Below, piece by piece: positions 4,695 to 57,473 of a stretch of 64,000 nucleotides of DNA. Under the pieces are notes generated by a model that saw only the letters and a list, made by a program, of their open reading frames with translations, was not told the DNA's origin and did not search any database. Every line of letters begins with the position of its first letter. Position 1 is the first letter of the stretch. Source of the DNA: Pimelobacter simplex (GTDB taxonomy: Bacteria; Actinomycetota; Actinomycetes; Propionibacteriales; Nocardioidaceae); contig NZ_CP096276.1 of the NCBI RefSeq assembly GCF_024662235.1, forward strand, positions 620,001 to 684,000, read 5' to 3'. Both the position numbers and the translations under genes were made by a program.

Positions 4695-5062
4695 GGGGCT
4701 GATCGGTTTCGACTTGGGACGTTTGTCCCAGGGGAAGCGGGTCGAGAAGCCAGCGTCATCTCGTAAACGATCGCTGGAAACCAATAACTGCCAACGCTAA
4801 GCGCAGTTCCTTCGCTCTCGCTGCCTGAGCAGTGATCGAAGCGTCTGACCGGGCATCCGTCTCCGTCCCGGACCCAGACGTCATCTAGGAGACTTGCTGC
4901 GTCACTCTCGCCGGGAGGGTGACGCGGGACTCAAACCCGGCTGGGCCTGTCGGCGACGTGTCAGTGCGAGCGCCGGGGCCGAGTAAAACGACACCACTGA
5001 CTGCACCCGGAGAAGACCTGGCTCGGCGCTCGAGGACCGGGGTTCGATTCCCCGCAGCTCCA
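4695..5062 (+). ncRNA. ssrA: Transfer-messenger RNA (tmRNA)
   Basis: tmRNA rescues stalled ribosomes and adds a degradation tag. The 5' end GGGGCUGAUCGGUUUCGAC is the conserved tmRNA opening; its first six bases pair with AGCUCC at 5056-5061 to form the tRNA-like acceptor stem, followed by the discriminator A (5062). The T-arm GGTTCGATTCC precedes this. CCA is not encoded. The tag reading frame starts with GCC at 4790 and reads ANAKRSSFALAA followed by TGA at 4826-4828; the FALAA-type end matches actinobacterial tags. Length is 368 nt. Boundaries rest on acceptor-stem pairing. Confidence 0.96.
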
Positions 5063-5071
5063 CTGATGGCG

Positions 5072-6947: not shown

Positions 6948-7609
6948 CAGCCGGCGGCGATCGCCGCGCTGACCGCCTCGGCGACCGGCACGTCCCCACC
7001 GACCAGGTTCCACTGCCGCCCGACCGTACGAGCGTCCCCGACCACCGCGGCGACCGCCGCCGCGACATCGGCCCGGGTGACGTCCCCGCGCGCGACGGCC
7101 GGCCCCAGCGCCACCCGGCCGGTGGGTGGGTCGTCGGTGAGGCGGCCGGGGCGGAGGATGGTCCAGTCGAGGGGGCTGTCGCGCAGGGCGGTGTCGGCGT
7201 CGCGCTTGGCGGCGACGTAGGCGGCCCAGACGGCGGGGGCGTCGGGGGAGACGGGGTGGTCGACGTCGATGGCGGAGACCTGGACGAAGCGTTGGATGCC
7301 GAGGCTCTGGGCGGCGGCGGAGGACTTGAGGGAGCCTTCGAGGTCGACGGTGCGCTTGCGGTCGATATTGCCGTCGGGGCCGCCGCCGGCGCTGAAGACG
7401 ACGGCGGCGCAGCCGGCGAAGGCGGTGGCGAAGCCGGCGACGTCGCTGTTCTCGATGTCGAGCAGGCGGACCTCGGCGCCGAGGGCCTCGAGGGCGGTGC
7501 GCTGGGACTCGCTGCGGACCAGGGCGACCGGTTGGTGCCCGGCGGCGACGAGCAGGGGGTGCAGCAGGCGGGCGATCTGACCGCTTCCTCCGACGACGGC
7601 GATACGCAT
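6947..7609 (-). CDS. NAD(P)-binding atypical SDR (NmrA/YwnB-like)
   Basis: 220 residues opening with MRIAVVGGSGQIA, the glycine-rich dinucleotide-binding motif of atypical short-chain dehydrogenases. DIENSD, VFSAGGG and RPGRLTDDP follow in the order seen in SDR_a5-type NAD(P)H-binding proteins. No classical YxxxK is clear, so it may be a redox sensor or isomerase-like protein. It is the first gene of a two-gene unit with the alpha/beta hydrolase (TGATG overlap). Start ATG gives the standard N-terminal Rossmann strand. Confidence 0.85.
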   Translation of the reverse strand: MRIAVVGGSGQIARLLHPLLVAAGHQPVALVRSESQRTALEALGAEVRLLDIENSDVAGFATAFAGCAAVVFSAGGGPDGNIDRKRTVDLEGSLKSSAAAQSLGIQRFVQVSAIDVDHPVSPDAPAVWAAYVAAKRDADTALRDSPLDWTILRPGRLTDDPPTGRVALGPAVARGDVTRADVAAAVAAVVGDARTVGRQWNLVGGDVPVAEAVSAAIAAG

Positions 7610-7679
7610 GCCCCCACCGTACGCCGGGCGCCCACCCGGTCCGCGCCGCCCGGCAGCGCCGCTCGGCGGCGGCCACGCC

Positions 7680-8357
7680 CTAGGCGTCGACCAGGCCCAG
7701 CCCGATCGCGACGGCGACGGCCTCGACCCGGGTGGTGACGCCCATCTTGGTCAGGATGTGCTCGACGTGGGTGCCGACGGTGCTGCGGGAGAGCACGAGC
7801 TCGGCGCCGATCTGGGGGTTGGTGCGGCCGCGGGCGAGGAGGGCGAGGATCTCGCGCTCGCGCGGGGTGAGGCCGAGGGCGGAGGCGTGGGCGGTCGTGG
7901 CGGCGAGGTCGGTGAGGGCCTGGGCGAGGCTGGTGAGGACGGCGCGGGCGTTGGGCGGGACGTAGGGCTCGGGGAGGCTGAGGTGGGCGATCCCGACGGC
8001 CTGGCCGTCGGTGCCGCGCAGTGCCATCGAGGTGCCCTCGGCGAAGCCGCACGGGCGGAGCACCTCGCGGGCGACGGTGTCCTCGGCGAAGCCGGTGATG
8101 TCCTCCCAGAAGTACGCCTTGCCGGGCTGGGTCAGCAGCCGCCGGACGAGGGGGTGGGCGGCGAAGTCGCCGAAGATGAAGTCGACCACCTCGGGCCGGT
8201 AGCCGGTCTGGACGAGGGGGCGCATCCGTCCGGTGTGCGCGTCGCGGTAGCCCAGCACCCACGCGGTGAACGGCACGGCCGCGCTCGCCAGCTCGAGGAG
8301 CTGGCGGGCGCGGCGCGACGTCGACGGGTAGGCGTCGACCGGCACGGCTGAGGTCAC
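7680..8357 (-). CDS. LuxR family transcriptional regulator
   Basis: 225 residues. The C-terminal 65 residues are a typical LuxR/GerE helix-turn-helix: LTPREREILALLARGRTNPQ, then GAELVLSRSTVGTHVEHIL. The N-terminal part (about 1-150) looks like a GAF-type or ligand-sensing domain without a phospho-acceptor Asp pattern, so it is not a standard response regulator. The GTG start at 8357 is chosen because the longer open frame upstream overlaps the amidase gene. It lies downstream of the amidase on the same strand (14 nt gap) and may regulate it or the SDR/hydrolase pair; this is inference. Confidence 0.82.
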   Translation of the reverse strand: MTSAVPVDAYPSTSRRARQLLELASAAVPFTAWVLGYRDAHTGRMRPLVQTGYRPEVVDFIFGDFAAHPLVRRLLTQPGKAYFWEDITGFAEDTVAREVLRPCGFAEGTSMALRGTDGQAVGIAHLSLPEPYVPPNARAVLTSLAQALTDLAATTAHASALGLTPREREILALLARGRTNPQIGAELVLSRSTVGTHVEHILTKMGVTTRVEAVAVAIGLGLVDA

Positions 8358-8371
8358 CGCACCAGTATCGG

Positions 8372-9823
8372 TCAGCGGCAGGCGGGCGGACAGTGCTGCG
8401 CCCACGGCGCCCGCTCCTCCAGTACGGCGGCCGCGCGCAGCAGCAGCGCGTCCTGGTGCAGCCCGGTGGCGAGCTGGAGCCCGACCGGGCAGCCGTCGGG
8501 GGTGAACCCGGCGGGCACCGACATCGCCGGGGTGGTCAGCAGGTTGAAGGGGTAGGTCAGGAACCAGCCGAGCAGCTGCTCGCGCAGCGGGCGCCCGGCG
8601 AGGTGGTCGGGCGCGAACTGGCCGTGGGGGAACGCCGGGGTCGCCACCGTCGGGGAGACGAGGACGTCGTAGCGCCCGAGGAAGCGGGCGAAGGCGTCCC
8701 ACATGACGCCGCGGGCGGCGTCCGCACGGCCGATGTCGACGCCGGTCAGCCGCTCGCCCTCGGCGATGAGCTCGATCAGCTCGTCGTCGACCTCGCCGCG
8801 CAGCGAGGCCCAGTCGAGCAGGTCGTGCTCGGAGGCGAAGCCCGGCACCCAGATCCCGTTCCACATGGCCGTCTGCGGGTCGGCGCCGCCCCAGTCGGGG
8901 GTGGCCTCCTCGACGATCGCGCCCGCGGCGGCGAGCGCCTCGACCGCGGTGCGGCAGAGCTTCTCGATCTCGGGGTCCACGGCGATGCCGAGGCCGAGGT
9001 CGCTCGACCACGCGACGCGGACGCCGGTGAGGTCGCGGTCCGCGATGGCGGCGGTGAAGTCGACCCGGTCCGGAAGGCTCAGCGGGTCGCGCGGGTCGGG
9101 TCCGCTGACCACGTCGAGCATGAGCGCGGCGTCGGCGACGGTGCGCGTGATCGGGCCGTGGTAGGCCCAGGAGTAGAAGCGTCCCGGGAGGATCGTCTGG
9201 GGGATCCGGCCGGTCGAGGGCTTCACCCCGACGACGCCGCACAGCGAGGCCGGGATGCGGACCGAGCCGCCGCCGTCGCTGGCCTCCGCGAGCGGCCCGA
9301 GGCCGGCCGCGACGGCCGCACCGGCGCCGCCCGACGAGCCGCCGGCGGTGTGCCCGGGACGCCACGGGTTGTGGGTCGCGCCGAACAGGTGGTTGTCGGT
9401 CGCGCCCTTGTAGCCCGACTCCGGGGTGTTGGTCTTGCCGAGGAACAGCCCGCCCGCGGCGGTCAGCCGCTCGACGATCACTGCGTCGTGGTCGGCGATG
9501 TTGTCGCGCAGGGGCTTCATGCCGAAGGTCAGCGGGACGCCGGCGACCGCGGTGAGGTCCTTGATCGTGAACGGTACGCCGTGCAGCGGGCCGGTCGCCG
9601 CGCCCGCGTCCTGGGCCGCGTCGAGGGCCGCCGCGTCCCGGCGTACCTGCTCCGGGTCGAACCACACCAGCGCGTTGACGGCGGGGTTGATCCGCTCCAC
9701 GCGCTCGATCATCGCCTCCGCGATGTCGGCGACGCGCAGCCGCCGGCTGCGGACCGCCGCGGCGATCTCGGTCGCGCTCAGCCACCCGATCTCGTCGGTG
9801 GGGGTGGGCGTCAGGTCGGTCAT
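8372..9823 (-). CDS. Amidase (amidase signature family)
   Basis: 483 residues. The amidase-signature triad is visible: K88 in PFTIKDL, the cis-Ser S163 in GGSSGG, and the nucleophile S187 in SDGGGSVRIP. The enzyme hydrolyses an amide to acid and ammonia; substrate is unknown. It lacks the GatA context (no gatB or gatC nearby), so it is a stand-alone catabolic amidase. ATG at 9823 follows AGGAG with good spacing. It may be co-transcribed with the downstream LuxR regulator. Confidence 0.9.
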   Translation of the reverse strand: MTDLTPTPTDEIGWLSATEIAAAVRSRRLRVADIAEAMIERVERINPAVNALVWFDPEQVRRDAAALDAAQDAGAATGPLHGVPFTIKDLTAVAGVPLTFGMKPLRDNIADHDAVIVERLTAAGGLFLGKTNTPESGYKGATDNHLFGATHNPWRPGHTAGGSSGGAGAAVAAGLGPLAEASDGGGSVRIPASLCGVVGVKPSTGRIPQTILPGRFYSWAYHGPITRTVADAALMLDVVSGPDPRDPLSLPDRVDFTAAIADRDLTGVRVAWSSDLGLGIAVDPEIEKLCRTAVEALAAAGAIVEEATPDWGGADPQTAMWNGIWVPGFASEHDLLDWASLRGEVDDELIELIAEGERLTGVDIGRADAARGVMWDAFARFLGRYDVLVSPTVATPAFPHGQFAPDHLAGRPLREQLLGWFLTYPFNLLTTPAMSVPAGFTPDGCPVGLQLATGLHQDALLLRAAAVLEERAPWAQHCPPACR

Positions 9824-9921
9824 CTCGGCTCCTCTGCTCGGTGGGTTCCGCGCACCGTAGGGCGGCGGGAGGAGCGAGCGGATCGGGCAGATGACCGACT
9901 TCGGCCCGGGAGTGCCCGGCG

Positions 9922-10692
9922 CTAGGGGCGCACCGTCAGCGTCTGCGCGATCGTGCCGAGGGGGCCGGTCTCGTCGTGCATCTTCGAGCTGGTGACCCCG
10001 ATCCCGCCGGGGCCGTAGGACTGGGTGGTGTCGAGCCCGAGCCAGCCCTCGGCGGGGGTGCGCAGGAAGTGCGCGGTGAGGTCGAGGTTGGGGAAGGCCA
10101 CCTTGGCCGGGTCGGTGCGGACCGCGATGCCGTTGGTGACGTCGACCAGCCCGGCGACCGCGGCGAGCCGGCTGACCGGCTCGTCGGCGACGAGCGGGTG
10201 GGCGGTGCGCACCCAGACCATCGAGCGGCCGGGGCCGAGCTCCTTGCGGCGGACCTCGATCGAGGCGATGAACCCGCCGGCCCACAGCCCCGCCATGTCC
10301 CACGGCTGCAGCTCGTCGGGGCCGGGGATCGAGGGCAGGTCGGTGCCGGCGAGCGGGGAGGTGTCGTAGGGCTCCACCAGCCACGCCCGCAGGACGACGA
10401 CCGCGCGGCCGCCGTGGCGGGCGGTCGCCTGGACCAGCTCGATCGTGCGGCCCGGGCGCAGCACCTCGACCTCGACCTCGATCGCCTCGATCGGGACGGT
10501 GCCGAGGATGTCGTAGGAGAGCCGGCTGACCACGAGGCCGTCGGAGCGCCGTGCGTCGCGGTCGCGCTCGATCTCGTGGGCCAGGACGCCGAGCGCCGGC
10601 GCGATGTGCTGGGTCGCGAGGTCCCAGGCGCCGCCGACGTGCTCGGTGGGGGTGAAGGTGTGCGGGGCGGTGCGCTGCCAGTAGGCCATCAC
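9922..10692 (-). CDS. Acyl-CoA thioesterase-like protein (TesB-type double hotdog)
   Basis: 256 residues organised as two hotdog halves. The N-terminal half carries DGLVVSRLSYDILGTVP and RPGRTIELVQATARHGGRAVVV, typical of the TesB/4HBT_3 family; the C-terminal half carries PNLDLTAHFLRTPAEGWLGLDT. The product would hydrolyse acyl-CoA thioesters. Start is GTG at 10692 or, equally good, the adjacent ATG at 10689, which has GGAG upstream. It is divergent from the glycerophosphodiesterase gene. Confidence 0.82.
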   Translation of the reverse strand: MMAYWQRTAPHTFTPTEHVGGAWDLATQHIAPALGVLAHEIERDRDARRSDGLVVSRLSYDILGTVPIEAIEVEVEVLRPGRTIELVQATARHGGRAVVVLRAWLVEPYDTSPLAGTDLPSIPGPDELQPWDMAGLWAGGFIASIEVRRKELGPGRSMVWVRTAHPLVADEPVSRLAAVAGLVDVTNGIAVRTDPAKVAFPNLDLTAHFLRTPAEGWLGLDTTQSYGPGGIGVTSSKMHDETGPLGTIAQTLTVRP

Positions 10693-51648: not shown

Positions 51649-52779
51649 TCAGCCGATGTGGTCGAGTGCCACGCTGAGGTCCCACGCGTCGTAGGCGTTG
51701 GTGGACCACGGCCCGGTTCCTGGCGAGAACACCAACCGAAGGTCGCCGCGCTCGGGCTGCCATGCGATCAGCGCTTCCGGAGTGAGAGCGAGGAAGTAGC
51801 CTCGCTGCCCGAACCCGAGGTACCTCACGAAGAACGTCCCTTTGCCCGGTCGCAGCACCGCCTCTACCCGCTGCCCGTCCGCGCTCACCCGCCCCAGCCG
51901 TTGCCCGGTCTCCCCGAGTGTCGCGACGAACGGACCCTCGCCCTCGCGGGGAAAGTACGCCGAACCGAATGTCCGCCCCTCGACGATCTCTCTGGCCGCC
52001 GTACTGATCTCGGGGTCGCCGCCCGGCGGCAGCTCTCTCCAGCGCCGCAGCTTCGCGGTGCCGTCACTCGCGGCGGTGACGTGGACGATGCCTTGTCCGC
52101 GGAAGGCTGAGCCGAGCAGGCGGAAGGGGAGTCGCTGGGCGTCGCGCGTCGTCCCTTGCCGGGGAAGGAAGTAGGTGCGATGGGTCTGGGGCGAGTCGAC
52201 CAGCAGGCTTCGGCTGTCCGGCGCCCACGAGATCGCTGCCACCCCGCCCCGGATCCGCGTCGTCCGCGCCTTGCCGGTCGCCAGGTCCAGGACCACCACG
52301 CCGAGCGCCGACGGCCCCGCCCACCGCTTACCGTCGGGTGAGAGGTGGCCGGCGCCGTACGTGTCCGGGCCGGGCCATCCGTCCGGATCGAGCCCTAGGT
52401 CGGCCAGGTTCAGCCGCAACCACCCCTGCTCCGGCACATGGAAGTAGATCGTCTCCGACCCCCACCCGCTCCCGTCCCTAGGGGATTCCAGCGGTCGGTA
52501 CGCCATCGTCGCCACCTCCGGCTGCACGCTCAGCAGGTCGCGCAGCCCGCCGTCCGGCGGTGCAGCGGCCGGGGCACCCAGGCGGGCTCGGTCGAGCCTG
52601 GCCAGGTCGGCAGGAAGGCGGAGCGTCGCAGGCCGTGGGCTGCTCGTCTCGGCGGGAGTCGCGCCGGTTGGGCCGCTGGGCTCGCGCCTCGGTGTGGGGT
52701 CGGCCGAGCACGCGGCGAGCGCTACGCCGACGGCGAGAGCGACCGACGGCGCCCGTCGGAGTCGCCGCCGGTCAGGCAT
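51649..52779 (-). CDS. Beta-propeller-like lipoprotein of the Mau-like locus
   Basis: 376 residues. Signal peptide with lipobox LAAC (C24), a Pro/Ser/Thr-rich linker (25-60), then repeated strands of the YWTD/TolB kind (GAGHLSPDGKRWAGPSA, VVVLDLATGKART, AAISWAPDSRSLLVDS) consistent with a beta-propeller. No catalytic residues are evident. It overlaps by 8 nt the Tat-exported Cys/Trp-rich protein gene; four minus-strand genes with 4-8 nt overlaps form the operon. The heavy chain of methylamine dehydrogenase is also a propeller; that parallel is an inference, not sequence homology I can show. Confidence 0.72.
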   Translation of the reverse strand: MPDRRRLRRAPSVALAVGVALAACSADPTPRREPSGPTGATPAETSSPRPATLRLPADLARLDRARLGAPAAAPPDGGLRDLLSVQPEVATMAYRPLESPRDGSGWGSETIYFHVPEQGWLRLNLADLGLDPDGWPGPDTYGAGHLSPDGKRWAGPSALGVVVLDLATGKARTTRIRGGVAAISWAPDSRSLLVDSPQTHRTYFLPRQGTTRDAQRLPFRLLGSAFRGQGIVHVTAASDGTAKLRRWRELPPGGDPEISTAAREIVEGRTFGSAYFPREGEGPFVATLGETGQRLGRVSADGQRVEAVLRPGKGTFFVRYLGFGQRGYFLALTPEALIAWQPERGDLRLVFSPGTGPWSTNAYDAWDLSVALDHIG

Positions 52780-53392
52780 GGTCAGGTGTCACCGGCGATC
52801 CCGTGATCGGCAACAGCTTCTCGCACACGGAGAATCGCCACGACCCGACGCTGCCGCCGACCTCGTGTCGGTACTTGCCGTCGGAGCAGCGACGGTCTCG
52901 CTTGTTGGGAATTCCCGGGTTGTTGCTGATTCGCCACACCCAGGCGTTGCGGTTCTTGCACGAGTTGGGGCGCCGCTCGTAGTTGCGCCACACCCATTCA
53001 CCGTTCTGGAGGCCGAGACGCTCCTCGTCGTTGCGGTGGTAGTCGTCCGCGTTGCAATAGCTGGAGCCGATCGGGATGTGGGTGTGCGGGTCGGTGTCGA
53101 CGCCGTCGTTGGCGGCAGGGTTGCACTCGGGCCAGAGGCCGTTGTCCCAGTCTGAGTAGTCGGCGCACTTGCCCCAGGTCGGCGGCAGCGCGAAGCCCGG
53201 AGCGAGCTTGAGGATCCCGTCGAGGGAGACCAGAGCCGTTGCGCTGGCAGAGACGAGCGCGCCCTTGATGAAGGCGCGCCGGCCGAAGGCGGCGACGATC
53301 AGCGAGCGACGTGCGTGGCTCCGGCTGGCGCCCGCGGGCTTGACGTCGGCGCTCGGGATGTCGTCCAGGAGCAAGGTGGGCATCGAGGTCAT
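52772..53392 (-). CDS. Tat-exported Cys/Trp-rich protein of the Mau-like locus
   Basis: 206 residues. A long N-region precedes a twin-arginine motif G37-R-R-A-F-I-K43 and a hydrophobic stretch (44-58), so export is probably in folded form. The mature part has six Cys (76, 90, 113, 145, 169, 190) and eight Trp (73, 82, 87, 133, 135, 151, 153, 185) in about 135 residues, with motifs GKCADYSDWD and NAWVWRISN. This resembles the methylamine dehydrogenase light chain in type (Tat, many Cys and Trp) but not in spacing. Flanked by MauD/MauE-like maturation genes. Function unknown. Confidence 0.72.
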   Translation of the reverse strand: MTSMPTLLLDDIPSADVKPAGASRSHARRSLIVAAFGRRAFIKGALVSASATALVSLDGILKLAPGFALPPTWGKCADYSDWDNGLWPECNPAANDGVDTDPHTHIPIGSSYCNADDYHRNDEERLGLQNGEWVWRNYERRPNSCKNRNAWVWRISNNPGIPNKRDRRCSDGKYRHEVGGSVGSWRFSVCEKLLPITGSPVTPDHA

Positions 53393-54111
53393 CCGTTCTT
53401 GGGTGTGTGGGCGAGTCTGGCGATGCCGTCGAGCAGTGCGGCGCACTTCTCCTCGAACTCCCGCTCGTGGACGCGAGGGGTGAGGACGGCGACGGCGCTC
53501 GGTGAGGAGATGACGAAGAAGGTGCTGGCCGGGTCCTCGGGGAAGGTCGAACGCCAGACCTCGCCGAGGCGTGCCTTGGCGCCGCTCCACGACGGCACCA
53601 TGGGCAGTCCGACCTCCGGGGAGTAGACGTCGAGCGTGCCCACCTCGGGGAAGAAGGTGAAGCTCTCCTTGACGCGGATCGTTTCTCCGACCTCCGAGGT
53701 CACGACCAGGCCGTCGGGCTCATCATGGAAGCGCAGACCGGACAGCCGGTCGAGAGCCGGGGTGACGTCGAGCGCCTCCGAGTTGGCGACGTAGGTCGCA
53801 ACCTCGTGGTGCGGCCCTCGCCAGAGAGCAAGACCGCGAGTGCGTCCCTTGACGTTGCTGGCGGCGACGAGGAACTCACCGCCGTCGTAGGAGAGACGCT
53901 GGAGCGGCTCCGACTCCATGTCGAAGGACATGTACGAGTCGTAGTTGCCTCGCGGCGCGACGTGGAACGTGCGGGTCCGGGACGCGTCCGGCGCCGTCCC
54001 GTCGAGCCTGCCGACCAGGTCGATCTGCGAGTTCCATGCATCGAACGGGCCGACATCGCGCATCTCGAGGTCGATCCGGCTGCCGTCTGCTTGCAGGTAG
54101 GTGGTCTTCAC
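53389..54111 (-). CDS. Unknown protein of the Mau-like locus
   Basis: 240 residues with no signal peptide or membrane segment and no family I recognise. It is beta-rich, with one Cys near the C-terminus (EEKCAALL). GTG at 54111 overlaps the MauD-like stop (GTGA), and its own stop overlaps the Tat protein start (ATGA), so it is co-translated. An upstream extension in the same frame has highly charged, low-complexity sequence inside the MauD-like gene and is rejected. Confidence 0.66.
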   Translation of the reverse strand: MKTTYLQADGSRIDLEMRDVGPFDAWNSQIDLVGRLDGTAPDASRTRTFHVAPRGNYDSYMSFDMESEPLQRLSYDGGEFLVAASNVKGRTRGLALWRGPHHEVATYVANSEALDVTPALDRLSGLRFHDEPDGLVVTSEVGETIRVKESFTFFPEVGTLDVYSPEVGLPMVPSWSGAKARLGEVWRSTFPEDPASTFFVISSPSAVAVLTPRVHEREFEEKCAALLDGIARLAHTPKNG

Positions 54112-54644
54112 GCGCGCTCCATTCGTTTGGTCCCGCCACGGCGGAGGGTCTGGCGGATCACGTCCTCGATCGCTTCGGGGGCGCCGGCCGGGTCGACGCT
54201 CACGATGCTTCCGTCGGCGTCGATGGCGATCAGCGCTGGTGTCCATCCCGGCAGCAGCCGGCGCCAGAGCGCCAGATTGACCTCGACCCGCACGTCGTTG
54301 TCAGCGTCGGCGCCGGTGGGGAGGTAGTCGAGGTCGGCATCCGCCACGACGAGTGCGCCGATCGCGTCGTCGACCTCGCGCATCGTGCGCCGGAAGATCG
54401 GCAGGACCTCCTGGCAGGAGGCGCATCCTCGGGCGACGAGGAGGACGAGAAGAACCTCGCGGCCCGGTGGCGGCCGGAGCAGCTCGGGGAAGGCTTCGCT
54501 GACGGACAGCCCGCCTCCATGTCCGCGCAGCTCCCGGACCTGCCCCTGAAGCATCCTGAGCTCGCGCAGTAGCCCCAGGAGGGCCAGCAGGATGAATCCG
54601 ACGAGCAGCGCCAAGATGACCACGGCTGCGTTGAGTGCGCTCAT
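54108..54644 (-). CDS. MauD-like thioredoxin-fold membrane protein
   Basis: 178 residues. An N-terminal membrane anchor (about 5-27), then a thioredoxin-like domain with an active-site CASC (C74, C77) and the cis-Pro T135-P136 (GWTPALIA). MauD is the disulfide-handling maturation protein of methylamine dehydrogenase; this protein shares its plan. It heads the minus-strand operon and is divergent from the MauE-like gene, so the pair flank one promoter region (54645-54758). ATG at 54644 has GAGGAG upstream and TATCGT (54667-54662). Confidence 0.82.
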   Translation of the reverse strand: MSALNAAVVILALLVGFILLALLGLLRELRMLQGQVRELRGHGGGLSVSEAFPELLRPPPGREVLLVLLVARGCASCQEVLPIFRRTMREVDDAIGALVVADADLDYLPTGADADNDVRVEVNLALWRRLLPGWTPALIAIDADGSIVSVDPAGAPEAIEDVIRQTLRRGGTKRMERA

Positions 54645-54721
54645 CCCCGAGACTCCTCACTACGATAGGCGGTCATGGTAAGCACCGGTGTCGCGTTCTG
54701 GCTAGAAGTGCGCTTCATGAC

Positions 54722-54752
54722 TTGACTGGAAGTTCCGGATCTGACCTAGCAT
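54722..54752 (+). promoter_or_regulatory. Promoter of the MauE-like gene
   Basis: TTGACT (54722-54727), a 19-nt spacer and TAGCAT (54747-54752) lie 6 nt before the ATG at 54759, indicating leaderless transcription. The opposite strand has TATCGT (54667-54662) for the divergent operon. Confidence 0.55.
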
Positions 54753-54758
54753 CGGCCC

Positions 54759-55295
54759 ATGGTCACCGTCGTCGTCTGTGCCACCGTCGTGGCGGCCGGC
54801 GTCCTTCTGACGGTGGCCGGCACCGCCCACATCCGGGACCGCAAAACGTTGCTGGCGCACCTTCTCGCTCACGACGTCCTGGGCTACCGGTGGTCGCGGC
54901 GGGCGGCCCAGCTGCTCGGCCCGGTCGAGCTGCTCCTCGGAATCGTTCTCCTGCTCAGCCCGGGCGCGGTCCTGGTGAGTGGCCACCCGCTGCCGCTCGT
55001 GGTCGCCGCGGCCTCGGCGGCTGCCCTGCTGCTGGTCATGACCGGGTACGTCCTTCAAGCGCTGCGCAGGGGAGGCGACCTGTTCTGCGCCTGCTTCGGA
55101 ACCGAGGAACGGCTCGGTGCGCGCACCCTGCTCCGGGTCTTGCTGCTCGGTCTTGCCATGGTGACGGCGACCGTCCGGCCGGCGTTCCCGCTGGCCTGGG
55201 CAGACTTGGCACTCGCGCTCGTCATCGGGGCGGTCGTTGCCGGCCTGCTGGGGCCTGCTCAGTGGGCTGCGCGCCGGACATCGGAGGCGGGCTGA
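54759..55295 (+). CDS. MauE-like (DoxX-type) membrane redox protein
   Basis: 178 residues with four membrane segments. GTAHIRDRKTLLAHLLAHDVLG followed by PVELLLGIVLLLSP matches the MauE/DoxX family, and GDLFCACFG (C110, C112) is the cysteine pair of MauE-type proteins at the membrane face. It probably exchanges electrons or disulfides with the MauD-like protein. Its stop overlaps the next gene (TGATG at 55293-55297). Confidence 0.85.
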   Translation: MVTVVVCATVVAAGVLLTVAGTAHIRDRKTLLAHLLAHDVLGYRWSRRAAQLLGPVELLLGIVLLLSPGAVLVSGHPLPLVVAAASAAALLLVMTGYVLQALRRGGDLFCACFGTEERLGARTLLRVLLLGLAMVTATVRPAFPLAWADLALALVIGAVVAGLLGPAQWAARRTSEAG

Positions 55296-55471
55296 TGGCG
55301 GTACCCAGCCGAGCCTCGGCAGCGGGTGCAGCACTGCACCCGCTGGCGTTGACGGTCGCGATCGGCGTCCTGGTGATCATCGCGGGTGCGCTTACACGTC
55401 AGCACGAGGTCCTGCCCTTCTGGCTGGTCGCCGCTCTCGCCGCGGGGTTCGCCATCTCCGGGTCGGTTTGA
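55295..55471 (+). CDS. Small membrane protein of the Mau-like locus
   Basis: 58 residues with two hydrophobic segments (about 14-31 and 41-56). The ATG at 55295 overlaps the MauE-like stop by one base. No family recognised. Its existence is supported by coupling and by the hydrophobic pattern; it could be a small subunit or stabiliser of the maturation complex. Confidence 0.5.
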   Translation: MAVPSRASAAGAALHPLALTVAIGVLVIIAGALTRQHEVLPFWLVAALAAGFAISGSV

Positions 55472-55486
55472 AGCCACAACTCAGCA

Positions 55487-56041
55487 ATGCTGATCGCGTC
55501 GGTCTGGCGCGGCTGGGCTCGTGGCACCTTCATCGCCGGTCTCCTCCTGGGCGGTCTCTTGGCGACCTCGATCGCCGTCGCCGTGGGGTCACTGGTCCTG
55601 CGGAGCTGGATTCCCGAAGGGACGACCCGCCGTGCCGTCGTGGGCGTCGTTGTCGTCATCGCATGGGCGCGCGACGCGGGTGTGGTGCGATTCAAGATCC
55701 CGCAGAACGCACGGCAGGTCCCTGAGGCGATCGCGCTCCAGGGGCAGCGCCTAGGTGCCTTTCAGTTCGGGGTCGAGATGGGCACGGGCATGCGCACCTT
55801 CATGACCAGCATGCTGCCGCATGTCGTCGTGGCAGCAGCGCTGCTTCTCTGCTCGTGGCCGGAGGGCGCGTTCATGGGCATCTGCTTCGGCTTCGGTCGA
55901 GCGATCGTGCCATTGGCCCGGACGTTCGCGGACAACGAGGACCGTTGGTCGGACGCCTTCAGCAAGAGGGAGCGCACGATCCAGGTATCGCTCGGCCTGG
56001 CCGTCGCCGTAGGCGGGCTGCTGGCGGGCGCCTTCTTCTAG
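55487..56041 (+). CDS. Polytopic membrane protein of the Mau-like locus
   Basis: 184 residues with about five membrane segments. A central cytoplasmic or membrane-edge motif (RFKIPQNARQVPEAI, then GAFQFGVEMGTGMRTFM) and FGFGRAIVPLAR are distinctive but I cannot assign a family. Two Cys lie in or near membrane helices (LLLCSW and GICFGF). By position it could play a MauF/CcdA-like electron-supply role. It is the last plus-strand gene of the locus and is followed by tRNA-Leu. Confidence 0.62.
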   Translation: MLIASVWRGWARGTFIAGLLLGGLLATSIAVAVGSLVLRSWIPEGTTRRAVVGVVVVIAWARDAGVVRFKIPQNARQVPEAIALQGQRLGAFQFGVEMGTGMRTFMTSMLPHVVVAAALLLCSWPEGAFMGICFGFGRAIVPLARTFADNEDRWSDAFSKRERTIQVSLGLAVAVGGLLAGAFF

Positions 56042-56103
56042 CGTGGAGTCAATCCTCCCGGGAGCAGTCCGGGAGGCGGCCACGTCGGAGAAGCGGGCCT
56101 CCG

Positions 56104-56185
56104 TGCCGGAGGCGGGACTCGAACCCGCACACCCGAAGGCACAGGTACCTAAAACCTGCGTGTCTGCCAGTTCCACCACTCCGGC
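56104..56185 (-). tRNA. tRNA-Leu (anticodon UAG)
   Basis: On the minus strand the 7-bp acceptor (GCCGGAG with CTCCGGC), the D-arm, an anticodon arm CAGGT-TTTAGGT-ACCTG with anticodon TAG, a long class II variable arm (GCC-TTCG-GGT) and the T-arm GCGGGTTCGAGTCCCGC form a canonical tRNA-Leu. Discriminator is A; CCA is not encoded. It reads CUA and other CUN codons. Its 3' end faces the Mau-like locus. Confidence 0.97.
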
Positions 56186-56246
56186 GATGAGCGCCACGAG
56201 TCTAGGGGCCGTTGCCCGCGCCCGCCCCGCCGGGAAGGATGCGAGC

Positions 56247-57473
56247 ATGCCGTCCACCCCCGAAGCCCTGATCGCGATCTACGAGGACCTGCACCGCCAC
56301 CCCGAGCTGGGTGGTCAGGAGCACCGGACCGCGGGCATCGTCGCCGACCACCTCCGCACCCTCGGGTACGACGTCACGACCGGCGTGGGCGGGACGGGTG
56401 TCGTCGCGACGCTCGAGCGGGGTGCCGGCCCGACGGTCCTGCTGCGCGCCGACATGGACGGCCTGCCGGTCCGCGAGGACACCGGTCTGCCCTACGCGAG
56501 CACCGCCACGGCCACCACCGCCGACGGCGAGGAGCACCCGGTGATGCACGCGTGCGGGCACGACGTCCACGTGACGTGCCTGCTGGGGGCGGCGGCTCGG
56601 CTGGTCGAGGACCGGGAGTGGCAGGGCCGGGTGCTGCTGGTGTTCCAGCCGGACGAGGAGACGGGCAACGGGGCCCGGGCGATGGTCGCGGACGGGCTCT
56701 ACGAGCGGTTCGGCAAGCCGGACGTGGTGCTGGGCCAGCACGTGGCGCCGCTGCCGGTGGGTGTGCTGGGCGTGACCGCGGGGCCGGCGTTCGCGGCCTC
56801 GGACAGCCTGCGGGTCGTGCTGCACGGCAGCGGCGGGCACGGGTCGCGGCCGGAGGCGACGGTCGACCCGGTGGTGCTGGGGGCGGCGACGGTGCTGCGG
56901 CTCCAGACGGTGGTCGCGCGCGAGATCGCGGGCAGCGACATGGCGGTGGTCACCGTGGGCTCGTTCCACGCGGGGACGGCGCCCAACATCATCCCGGACG
57001 AGGCGGTGCTGCAGCTGTCGATCCGGACCACCGACGAGCACGTGCGGGCCCGGGTGCTGGCCGCGGTCGAGCGCATCGTCCGGGGCGAGGCGGCGGCCGC
57101 GGGTGCGCCCCGCGAGCCGGAGGTCGTGACGATCGACGGGACGCCCACGGTGGTCAACGACGCCGGCGCGTGCGCGCGGGTCACCGCGGCGTTCCAGGCG
57201 GCGGGCGGGCACCTGGTGGTCGACCCGGGGACGGTGACCGGCAGCGAGGACGTGGGCATCCTGGCCGACGAGGCGGGGGTGCCGTGCGCCTACTGGCTGC
57301 TCGGGGGAGCGGACCCGGCGCTGTTCGCGGGCGCGACCACGGTCGAGGAGCTCAAGCGCGTGGTCGGCGAGCTGCCCTCGAACCACTCGCCCCGCTTCGC
57401 GCCGCTGGCCGCGCCCACGCTGGAGTCCGGCGTCGCCGCCCTGGTCACCGCGGCCCGGTCCTTCCTGGGCTGA
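56247..57473 (+). CDS. M20 family amidohydrolase (N-acyl-amino-acid or hippurate hydrolase type)
   Basis: 408 residues. The M20D metal ligands are visible: RADMDGLPV, HACGHDVH (with the conserved Cys), QPDEETGNGA with the catalytic Glu, and HGSGGHGSRPE; the last His is in SNHSPRFAP. Cytoplasmic, hydrolysing an N-acyl or amide bond. ATG at 56247 follows GGGAAGGA. It converges with the LuxR gene at 57480. Confidence 0.92.
   Translation: MPSTPEALIAIYEDLHRHPELGGQEHRTAGIVADHLRTLGYDVTTGVGGTGVVATLERGAGPTVLLRADMDGLPVREDTGLPYASTATATTADGEEHPVMHACGHDVHVTCLLGAAARLVEDREWQGRVLLVFQPDEETGNGARAMVADGLYERFGKPDVVLGQHVAPLPVGVLGVTAGPAFAASDSLRVVLHGSGGHGSRPEATVDPVVLGAATVLRLQTVVAREIAGSDMAVVTVGSFHAGTAPNIIPDEAVLQLSIRTTDEHVRARVLAAVERIVRGEAAAAGAPREPEVVTIDGTPTVVNDAGACARVTAAFQAAGGHLVVDPGTVTGSEDVGILADEAGVPCAYWLLGGADPALFAGATTVEELKRVVGELPSNHSPRFAPLAAPTLESGVAALVTAARSFLG

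What the first reader, a model, noticed from the sequence alone, without database searches (positions are those of the whole stretch)
51649..56041. Undescribed Mau-like periplasmic maturation locus in an actinobacterium
Seven genes share one divergent promoter region. On the minus strand, with 4-8 nt overlaps, are a MauD-like thioredoxin-fold protein (CASC, cis-Pro), an unknown 240-aa protein, a Tat-exported protein with 6 Cys and 8 Trp in about 135 mature residues, and a propeller-like lipoprotein. On the plus strand are a MauE/DoxX-type protein with a CxC pair, a 58-aa membrane protein and a polytopic membrane protein. MauD and MauE are the maturation pair of methylamine dehydrogenase, whose light chain is Tat-exported and Cys/Trp-rich and whose heavy chain is a propeller. 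The cargo here has no canonical light-chain Cys spacing and no MauG is visible, so it may be a different disulfide-rich or cofactor-modified extracellular system.
Basis: partly seen in the sequence, partly recalled or inferred. Interest (0 to 1): 0.88.

Follow-up and report, generated by a model that had tools for sequence, protein, structure and literature searches.

The report
Hidden selenoprotein in actinobacterial redox cluster
Two small genes in this soil-bacterium cluster are really one membrane protein that appears to carry selenium at an internal 'stop' codon, part of a conserved, apparently undescribed gene set that probably matures a secreted cysteine-rich cell-wall protein.

Summary
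The cluster is real, but two of its 'seven genes' are one. The 58-aa and 184-aa ORFs share a frame, split only by TGA at 55469-55471. The TGA was found at the matching place in 25 of 25 related loci; a profile search of 394 class genomes, with Cys at that column, gave 19 strong matches, each with one TGA there. A sister group has UGA or Cys. A SECIS-like helix follows (156 of 156 cells paired, 4 of 6 pairs with double changes). The genome has SelA, SelB, SelD, tRNA-Sec and a UGA-containing FdhA. All 14 class genomes with the gene have tRNA-Sec, against 108 of 394 overall; in 9 of 19 it lies within 8 kb of selC. No Pfam or NCBIfam model reaches its cut-off and a 119-entry catalogue lists no such motif. 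A 240-aa protein, a MauD-like thioredoxin and the six-Cys exported protein accompany it in 24 of 25 loci. Best reading: a new membrane selenoprotein family working with MauD/MauE on a cell-wall protein; the chemistry is inferred. A methylamine-dehydrogenase relationship is not supported.

The parts
55295..56041 (+). selenoprotein gene (248 codons, proposed Sec at codon 59), read by ordinary rules as a 58-aa ORF plus a 184-aa ORF
   Evidence: TGA at the matching place in 25 of 25 group A loci; 19 of 19 strong class matches have one TGA; AlphaFold2 of the read-through protein mean pLDDT 90.5, pTM 0.88, but only 61 for residues 61-70 just after the Sec
55469..55471 (+). in-frame UGA, proposed selenocysteine codon (Sec59)
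   Evidence: conserved TGA; Cys (TGC) at the matching place in two sister-group members, L089 and L090
55472..55516 (+). SECIS-like element: helix 55481-55485/55489-55493; apical helix 55495-55500/55506-55511 with loop GGUCU 55501-55505, 29 nt after UGA
   Evidence: covariation, published bSECIS limits met; covariance model finds only the three paralogues strongly in 6.26 Mb (they helped build it)
54759..55295 (+). MauE-family membrane protein with FCACFG motif
   Evidence: Pfam PF07291 59.1 bits, cut-off 27
54108..54644 (-). MauD-like membrane-anchored thioredoxin-fold-like protein, CASC, putative cis-Pro136
   Evidence: C74, C77, P136, G145 invariant in 17 sequences; Pfam thioredoxin only weak, E 0.087
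53389..54111 (-). 240-aa protein of unknown family, nearly always with the set; possibly a cargo chaperone (inference)
   Evidence: profile matches in 24 of 25 loci
52772..53392 (-). Tat-type exported cargo, 206 aa, 6 Cys, invariant Trp151 and Trp153
   Evidence: 48 chosen sequences: C76, C113, C145, W151, W153, C169, D171, C190 invariant, C90 nearly so; 312 relatives found
51649..52779 (-). lipoprotein, possibly a beta-propeller; found with 7 of 25 loci (accessory)
   Evidence: profile matches; a paralogue L011:8577-9524 passes the PD40 cut-off
54645..54758 (.). divergent intergenic region between the MauD-like and MauE-like starts
   Evidence: promoters not tested

Best explanation
The locus encodes a new family of membrane selenoproteins and its partners. 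UGA at 55469-55471 is read as selenocysteine with the help of the stem-loop just downstream, giving one 248-residue polytopic protein. Its Sec lies in a short broken-helix stretch after the helix 40-53 and is the only conserved Cys/Sec column, so it should react with a partner's thiols. The likely partners are the CxxC of the MauD-like protein and the CxC of MauE. Together they would form a thiol/selenol relay across the membrane that forms, isomerises or keeps reduced the cysteines of the Tat-exported six-Cys protein, which probably ends up in the cell wall. Shown by computation: conserved coding through the UGA, SECIS-like structure, Sec machinery, UGA/Cys exchange in the sister group, gene association. 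Inferred: Sec insertion itself (about 0.95), relay with MauD/MauE on the cargo (about 0.55), electron direction (unknown).
For: (1) TGA at the matching place in 25 of 25 group A loci; S55 G56 S57 V58 U59 S60 H61 N62 S63 A64 invariant in nine, SGS(V/T)-U-(S/T)xNS in the wider set. (2) The class-search profile had Cys at that column, so TGA was not built in: 19 of 19 strong matches have exactly one TGA. Six further loci came from a DNA pattern that contains the TGA, so there it is by construction; a second Actinoplanes locus beside one of them (L092:7925) was found by profile. (3) 12 of 28 UGA sites have no start codon in the next 12 codons; the +4 Ser is TCN in 18 and AGC in 7 group A sites. 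(4) Sister group B, homologous downstream of the site (hhalign E 4.2e-17), has TGA in 6 loci and Cys in 2 (in two of the six the TGA lies just before the matched stretch). (5) Apical helix: 156 of 156 cells paired in 26 distinct rows, 4 of 6 pairs with double changes; 26 of 28 UGA sites meet bSECIS limits, 0 of 2 Cys sites, controls 87 of 326 and 379 of 2000. (6) SelD, SelA, SelB, tRNA-Sec in the genome and a UGA FdhA. (7) tRNA-Sec in 14 of 14 class genomes with the gene, 108 of 394 overall, p 7e-9 without correction for kinship. (8) selC within 8 kb in 9 of 19 genomes (positions); none of these 9 has FdhA over the TIGR01553 cut-off. (9) 84 database relatives are all 145-199 aa and begin after the UGA, none with Cys before it (7,998 candidates scored). 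(10) AlphaFold2 mean pLDDT 90.5.
Against: No protein data: Sec insertion is not shown. Two of 28 UGA sites (L010, L075) fail my stem limits, and the 326-site control still holds some of the Sec sites, called as short genes. The window's 45-nt element alone folds only slightly better than shuffles (z -0.91). The helix was chosen from folds of these same sequences, and sliding it by +3 also gives 13 double-change cells (16 observed), though only 53% pairing. No Cys member of group A was found, unusual for a selenoprotein family. N. acrostichi keeps the UGA gene but has no tRNA-Sec over the gathering score (best 41.6 of 47) and no SelB over the cut-off; its locus has lost the 240-aa and MauD genes, which fits decay but is one case. 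SelB is under its cut-off in 3 other genomes with the gene (G198, G200, G201). One group B UGA genome (G343, 68% complete) had no tRNA-Sec match. Model confidence is low (61) right after the Sec, where only 7 of 46 aligned rows reach. MauE was not detected at 8 of 25 loci (two of these are short contigs). Nothing tests contact between the selenoprotein, MauD and the cargo.
Confidence: 0.72

Rival explanations
1. UGA is an ordinary stop. A 58-aa membrane peptide and a 184-aa membrane protein are two genes coupled by termination and re-initiation.
For: An ATG sits 15 nt after the TGA in the window; 16 of 28 UGA sites have some start codon within 8 codons; databases list the downstream part as a protein of its own.
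Against: 12 of 28 sites have no start codon there; residues between TGA and the would-be start are conserved and survive a TCN/AGC serine switch; Cys replaces TGA in two sister-group members; tRNA-Sec in 14 of 14 genomes and selC linkage; the joined chain gives a mostly confident model.
Confidence: 0.04
2. UGA is read through by another amino acid (Trp, Cys or near-cognate suppression), with the stem-loop as a read-through signal.
For: Stem-loops after stops can stimulate read-through (general knowledge, recalled).
Against: Co-occurrence and linkage with the Sec machinery; the stem-loop meets published bSECIS limits; Cys, not Trp, stands at the column in the sister group.
Confidence: 0.02
3. 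The selenoprotein feeds electrons outward like CcdA/DsbD to keep MauD or a cofactor site of the cargo reduced, for cofactor insertion, not to make disulfides.
For: CcdA 5vkv has the highest Foldseek probability of the 50 rows shown (0.84, TMq 0.34, E 0.1); the model has two helix interruptions, 54-73 and 165-173; Tat export suits a cargo folded or cofactor-loaded in the cytosol (general knowledge).
Against: No sequence relation to actinobacterial CcdA (hhalign probability 1.2-1.3); one Sec in place of two Cys; CcdA is not among the VIA rows shown, and those scores are weak and tied with unrelated transporters.
Confidence: 0.2
4. The locus matures a methylamine-dehydrogenase-like quinoenzyme: the cargo is the light chain with crosslinked tryptophans, the lipoprotein the propeller heavy chain.
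For: MauE and MauD-like pair; Tat-type signal; two invariant Trp (W151, W153); gene order MauE-MauD-cargo in L083, L084, L086, with weak MauE profile matches (E about 1e-5); a lipoprotein paralogue matches PD40.
Against: No light-chain match in 20 cargo sequences, none in solved structures; lipoprotein found with 7 of 25 loci; cargo fused to peptidoglycan-binding repeats elsewhere.
Confidence: 0.05

Closest known systems
Bacterial selenoproteins (UGA + bSECIS), e.g. FdhA
   Same: in-frame UGA, stem-loop 29 nt downstream with GGU at the loop, genome with SelA/SelB/SelD/tRNA-Sec, UGA/Cys exchange in the sister group
   Different: a polytopic membrane protein in a MauD/MauE-type gene set; no listed motif like SGSV-U-S among the 119 families/subfamilies of the 2026 review Table 1 (PMC13188914; some entries list no motif); no Pfam or NCBIfam model over its cut-off
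Mau maturation pair MauD/MauE (methylamine dehydrogenase)
   Same: MauE family member plus membrane-anchored CxxC thioredoxin-fold-like protein beside a Tat-type Cys-rich protein
   Different: cargo unrelated by the sequence tests made; no enzyme subunits recognised; adds a selenoprotein and a 240-aa protein
CcdA/DsbD membrane electron transporters
   Same: polytopic, interrupted helices with the reactive residue near the first interruption (model only); weak fold resemblance
   Different: no sequence relation; a single Sec instead of two Cys
RnfA / NqrE
   Different: tied with unrelated transporters; may be a common helix arrangement only

Membership tests
bacterial selenoprotein | in-frame UGA with conserved coding sequence on both sides | tested here: met
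   25 of 25 group A loci have the TGA; invariant flanks in nine, conserved in the 19 class matches
bacterial selenoprotein | bSECIS: loop 3-9 nt, stem 4-16 bp, G in first two loop positions, 16-37 nt from UGA, energy <= -7.5 | tested here: met
   window: 29 nt, 5-nt loop GGUCU, 7 bp, -9.0; 26 of 28 sites, with my stricter minimum of 5 unbulged bp (limits); controls pass in 27% and 19%
bacterial selenoprotein | Cys homologues at the Sec position | tested here: met
   only in the sister group (L089, L090); none among 84 database relatives
bacterial selenoprotein | Sec machinery in the genome | tested here: met
   SelD, SelA, SelB and tRNA-Sec side by side
bacterial selenoprotein | selenium in the protein | not testable with these tools
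   needs 75Se label or mass spectrometry
Mau/MADH system | MauE | tested here: met
   PF07291 above cut-off
Mau/MADH system | MauD (membrane-anchored thioredoxin fold) | tested here: inconclusive
   CxxC and Pro conserved; no Pfam or NCBIfam match over cut-off
Mau/MADH system | MADH light chain | tested here: not met
   no light-chain match in 20 cargo sequences scanned against Pfam
Mau/MADH system | MADH heavy chain | tested here: not met
   lipoprotein has no such Pfam match
Mau/MADH system | MauG di-haem enzyme | not tested
   not searched in the genome
CcdA/DsbD transmembrane family | profile similarity | tested here: not met
   hhalign probability 1.2-1.3 against 12 actinobacterial CcdA; no Pfam match to the family
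CcdA/DsbD transmembrane family | two reactive Cys | tested here: not met
   one conserved Sec/Cys column only
CcdA/DsbD transmembrane family | fold | tested here: inconclusive
   Foldseek probability 0.84, TMq 0.34, E 0.1; CcdA not among the VIA rows shown

The most novel reading that the evidence does not exclude
A selenium-dependent membrane machine for maturing a Tat-exported, Cys-rich cell-wall protein. It would be a kind of selenoprotein system not yet described, and the reason why many actinomycetes without Sec-type formate dehydrogenase still keep the selenocysteine machinery (13 of the 19 genomes with gene and tRNA-Sec have no FdhA over the TIGR01553 cut-off).
Probability: 0.45. Interest if true: 0.92.

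Novelty: new variant of a known kind. Interest (0 to 1): 0.86.

Why it matters
Most known selenoproteins are soluble-type redox enzymes or thioredoxin-like proteins (review PMC13188914). Here Sec appears in a polytopic membrane protein of a conserved export and maturation gene set of actinomycetes (Nocardioides, Streptomyces, Actinoplanes, Pseudonocardia, Pimelobacter and unnamed others). None of the 84 database relatives is listed at full length, and those with names are nearly all 'hypothetical protein'. It gives a candidate answer to what the Sec machinery is for in actinomycetes without Sec-type formate dehydrogenase. It also makes a direct question testable: does selenium take part in oxidative folding, or its reverse, outside the cell?

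Tried and rejected
Methylamine-dehydrogenase light or heavy chain: no Pfam, NCBIfam or solved-structure match. The sister group's Cys-rich Tat protein reminded me of the MADH light chain from memory; its three-sequence profile found nothing among solved structures up to E 10. CcdA homology by profile: rejected. Cargo fold: AlphaFold2 mean pLDDT 66, confident only around 111-140 and 171-190; no convincing match by Foldseek or VIA; nothing can be concluded. Rfam: no SECIS family at the site even at E 10. Genome-contig scan with the MauE protein found nothing. Plasmids: no cargo match. Selenoprotein profile against solved structures: only weak unrelated stretches. Codon constraint: downstream of the UGA most invariant residues use one or two codons (CAC, AAC, TCA/G, CTG, TCG, GTC), but the region mean (2.07 distinct codons) against elsewhere (2.78) is a modest contrast because the positions upstream vary freely. 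One search was a poorly chosen alignment (one wrong row) and was not used.

Counting notes: 'group A' (25 loci) = window, L010, L011, L012/L023, L018, L020, L073 (two), L074-L086, L092 (two), L093, L094. One more class match (G539, L052) was fetched only as a short stretch and is not in the 25. The 28 UGA sites are these 25 plus group B L087, L088, L091. Alignment A6 holds 27 of the 28: L077 was left out. In one search L064 gave no row, and L066 was a fragment without a usable Sec region. Group B UGA genomes G249, G350, G440, G490, G368 have tRNA-Sec, G343 does not; of the Cys genomes G216 has a 55-bit match and G306 none. FdhA over the cut-off occurs in 6 of 20 genomes searched (G000, G200, G426, G487 with a TGA; G394, G492 without); G198 and G200 also have short matches below the cut-off with one TGA, not followed up. 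No MauE: L011, L018, L020, L076, L077, L078, L081, L093. Lipoprotein: window, L010, L011, L012, L074, L077, L081. For A8 I chose 39 of the 84 relatives plus 7 read-through proteins; for A9, 48 rows in all, chosen from the 120 listed of 312.
Full report
THE OBSERVATION. The window is part of a 6.26-Mb genome. A same-genus genome (G175) has a contig of 135,822 bases, the length of the Nocardioides acrostichi contig, so the organism is probably a Nocardioides. Only MauE passes a Pfam cut-off (59.1 bits against 27); no NCBIfam model reaches its cut-off.

THE SET RECURS. The cargo has two paralogues in the same genome and a fragment in one other of 198 genomes of the family. Fetching those places showed several of the same partners around each. 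Across 25 related loci, profiles for the 240-aa protein, the MauD-like protein and the cargo all match in 24. Two common orders are 240aa-(MauE)-MauD-cargo-membrane protein and MauE-MauD-membrane protein-240aa-cargo. MauE was not detected at 8 of the 25, and the lipoprotein was found with 7.

TWO ORFs ARE ONE. In the window the 58-aa ORF ends in TGA, and 15 nt later, in the same frame, the 184-aa ORF begins. The same arrangement and nearly the same DNA (GTTTGAAGCCACAACTCAGC) occur in the two paralogues and in N. acrostichi. The 20-mer occurs three times in the genome with up to 3 mismatches allowed, its reversed control not at all. A scan of genome contigs found a 23-base version in Pseudonocardia (two), Actinoplanes flavus, Streptomyces uncialis, Pimelobacter simplex and N. 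acrostichi; in all six the frame is open on both sides of the TGA. A profile of the joined protein, with Cys at the TGA, was then searched in 394 genomes of the class: 24 had a match. The 19 strong matches (14 genomes) each contain exactly one TGA, at the same place. A weaker group B reads WSP-TGA-GES in six loci and WSP-C-G in two. Groups A and B are homologous (hhalign E 4.2e-17 over 164 columns; those columns lie after the Sec site, while four of the profile matches span it). In a database of 5.8 billion proteins 84 relatives were found among the 7,998 candidates scored; all are 145-199 aa and begin after the UGA.

WHY SELENOCYSTEINE. Twelve of 28 UGA sites have no start codon in the next 12 codons, and the serine at +4 is written TCN in 18 group A sites and AGC in 7, so the region just after UGA is conserved as protein in this frame. 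The apical helix after UGA is paired in 156 of 156 cells over 26 distinct rows; 4 of 6 pairs change on both sides (2 of 500 shuffles reach that), and slid versions pair in only 38-53% of cells, though the +3 slide also shows 13 double-change cells. I chose the helix from folds of these sequences, which favours it. A second helix nearer UGA is 97.6% paired in 17 rows but has no double change. The published bSECIS limits, read in PMC13188914 section 5, are met by 26 of 28 UGA sites, by neither of the two Cys sites, by 87 of 326 gene ends at TGA (some of them the Sec sites themselves) and by 379 of 2000 random coding positions. A covariance model of the element finds the three paralogues at E 7e-20 to 5e-18 in the own genome and nothing else better than E 0.008 (these three helped build the model). 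The genome carries SelD, SelA, SelB and tRNA-Sec together, and an FdhA with in-frame TGA.

CO-OCCURRENCE AND LINKAGE. tRNA-Sec is present in 108 of the same 394 genomes and in all 14 with the group A gene (p 7e-9 by hypergeometric count, kinship not corrected). Of 19 genomes with gene and tRNA-Sec (14 plus five reached by the DNA scan), 9 have them 2.3-7.6 kb apart by start positions; some of the others are split over short contigs. None of these nine has an FdhA over the TIGR01553 cut-off; 13 of the 19 lack one. Other selenoproteins were not searched for, and one of the 13 (G198) has a short below-cut-off match with a TGA. N. acrostichi has no tRNA-Sec over the gathering score and no SelB over the cut-off, and its locus has lost the 240-aa and MauD genes and keeps only pieces of MauE and cargo, as expected if the Sec machinery was lost first.

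THE CARGO. 312 relatives were found. In 48 chosen and aligned sequences C76, C113, C145, C169, C190, W151, W153 and D171 are invariant, and C90 and H119 nearly so. A leader motif of the LDDIP kind stands near the N-terminus in 43 of 48 by a loose pattern, without a control; it could be a site for a dedicated chaperone such as the 240-aa protein (inference). Some relatives carry peptidoglycan-binding repeats, and the group B Tat protein carries LGFP repeats, so the product is probably attached to the cell wall.

MECHANISM. Committed reading: Sec59 forms a mixed selenylsulfide with the MauD-like CxxC or the MauE CxC and passes electrons across the membrane, so that the exported cargo obtains or keeps the right cysteine state. 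The gene association is shown; the chemistry and its direction are inferred. Sec would suit fast, overoxidation-resistant exchange at the outside (general knowledge, recalled).

NOVELTY. A 2026 review lists 119 families and subfamilies (section 7 with Table 1 read). None is listed with this motif or a MauE context, though some entries list no motif; 'actinobacter', 'Streptomyces' and 'membrane protein' have no occurrence in its main text. The deep-Sep paper has no occurrence of 'actinobacter', 'Streptomyces' or 'membrane' (term search only). NCBIfam of June 2026 has no model over its cut-off for the read-through protein. Literature searches gave no listed title or abstract start that reports it. 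Beyond listings I saw sections 5, 7 and 9 of PMC13188914 and passages of PMC5029168. Only open-licence papers are held, so a report elsewhere is possible.

Noticed in passing
L010:8780-9317 (-): The MauE-like match at this paralogous locus lies in two overlapping pieces in different frames: a broken copy or a sequencing fault.
   Followed up: no
L013:6443-7270 and 7274-8011 (+) (G000:C1 about 714-716 kb): The genome's strongest MauE match stands next to a DsbA-like thioredoxin-fold protein (by eye), apparently a separate pair from the one in the window.
   Followed up: partly
L087, L088, L090, L091: Sister system: MauE, a longer MauD-like protein, UGA or Cys membrane protein and, in L087, L088 and L091, a Tat-type protein with a domain of many invariant Cys followed by LGFP repeats.
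   Followed up: partly
L092 (Actinoplanes flavus), L073, L074/L075: Some genomes carry two group A loci on one contig, as the own genome carries three far apart.
   Followed up: partly
L012, L073-L075: Several loci lie in stretches of 56-68% G+C; in N. acrostichi (L012) this is a dip inside DNA of about 70%, which suggests horizontal transfer.
   Followed up: partly
L011:8577-9524 and 9719-10675 (+): The lipoprotein is duplicated in tandem at this locus.
   Followed up: no
window 4695-5065 (+): tmRNA gene (Rfam RF00023, 165 bits).
   Followed up: no
window 56104-56185 (-): tRNA gene directly downstream of the cluster; the longest reading of the next ORF (56043-57473) runs over it, so that gene probably starts later.
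   Followed up: no
G198:C257:22947-23393, G200:C424 and C669: Short molybdoenzyme-like matches below the FdhA cut-off, each with one in-frame TGA: other selenoproteins or chance.
   Followed up: no
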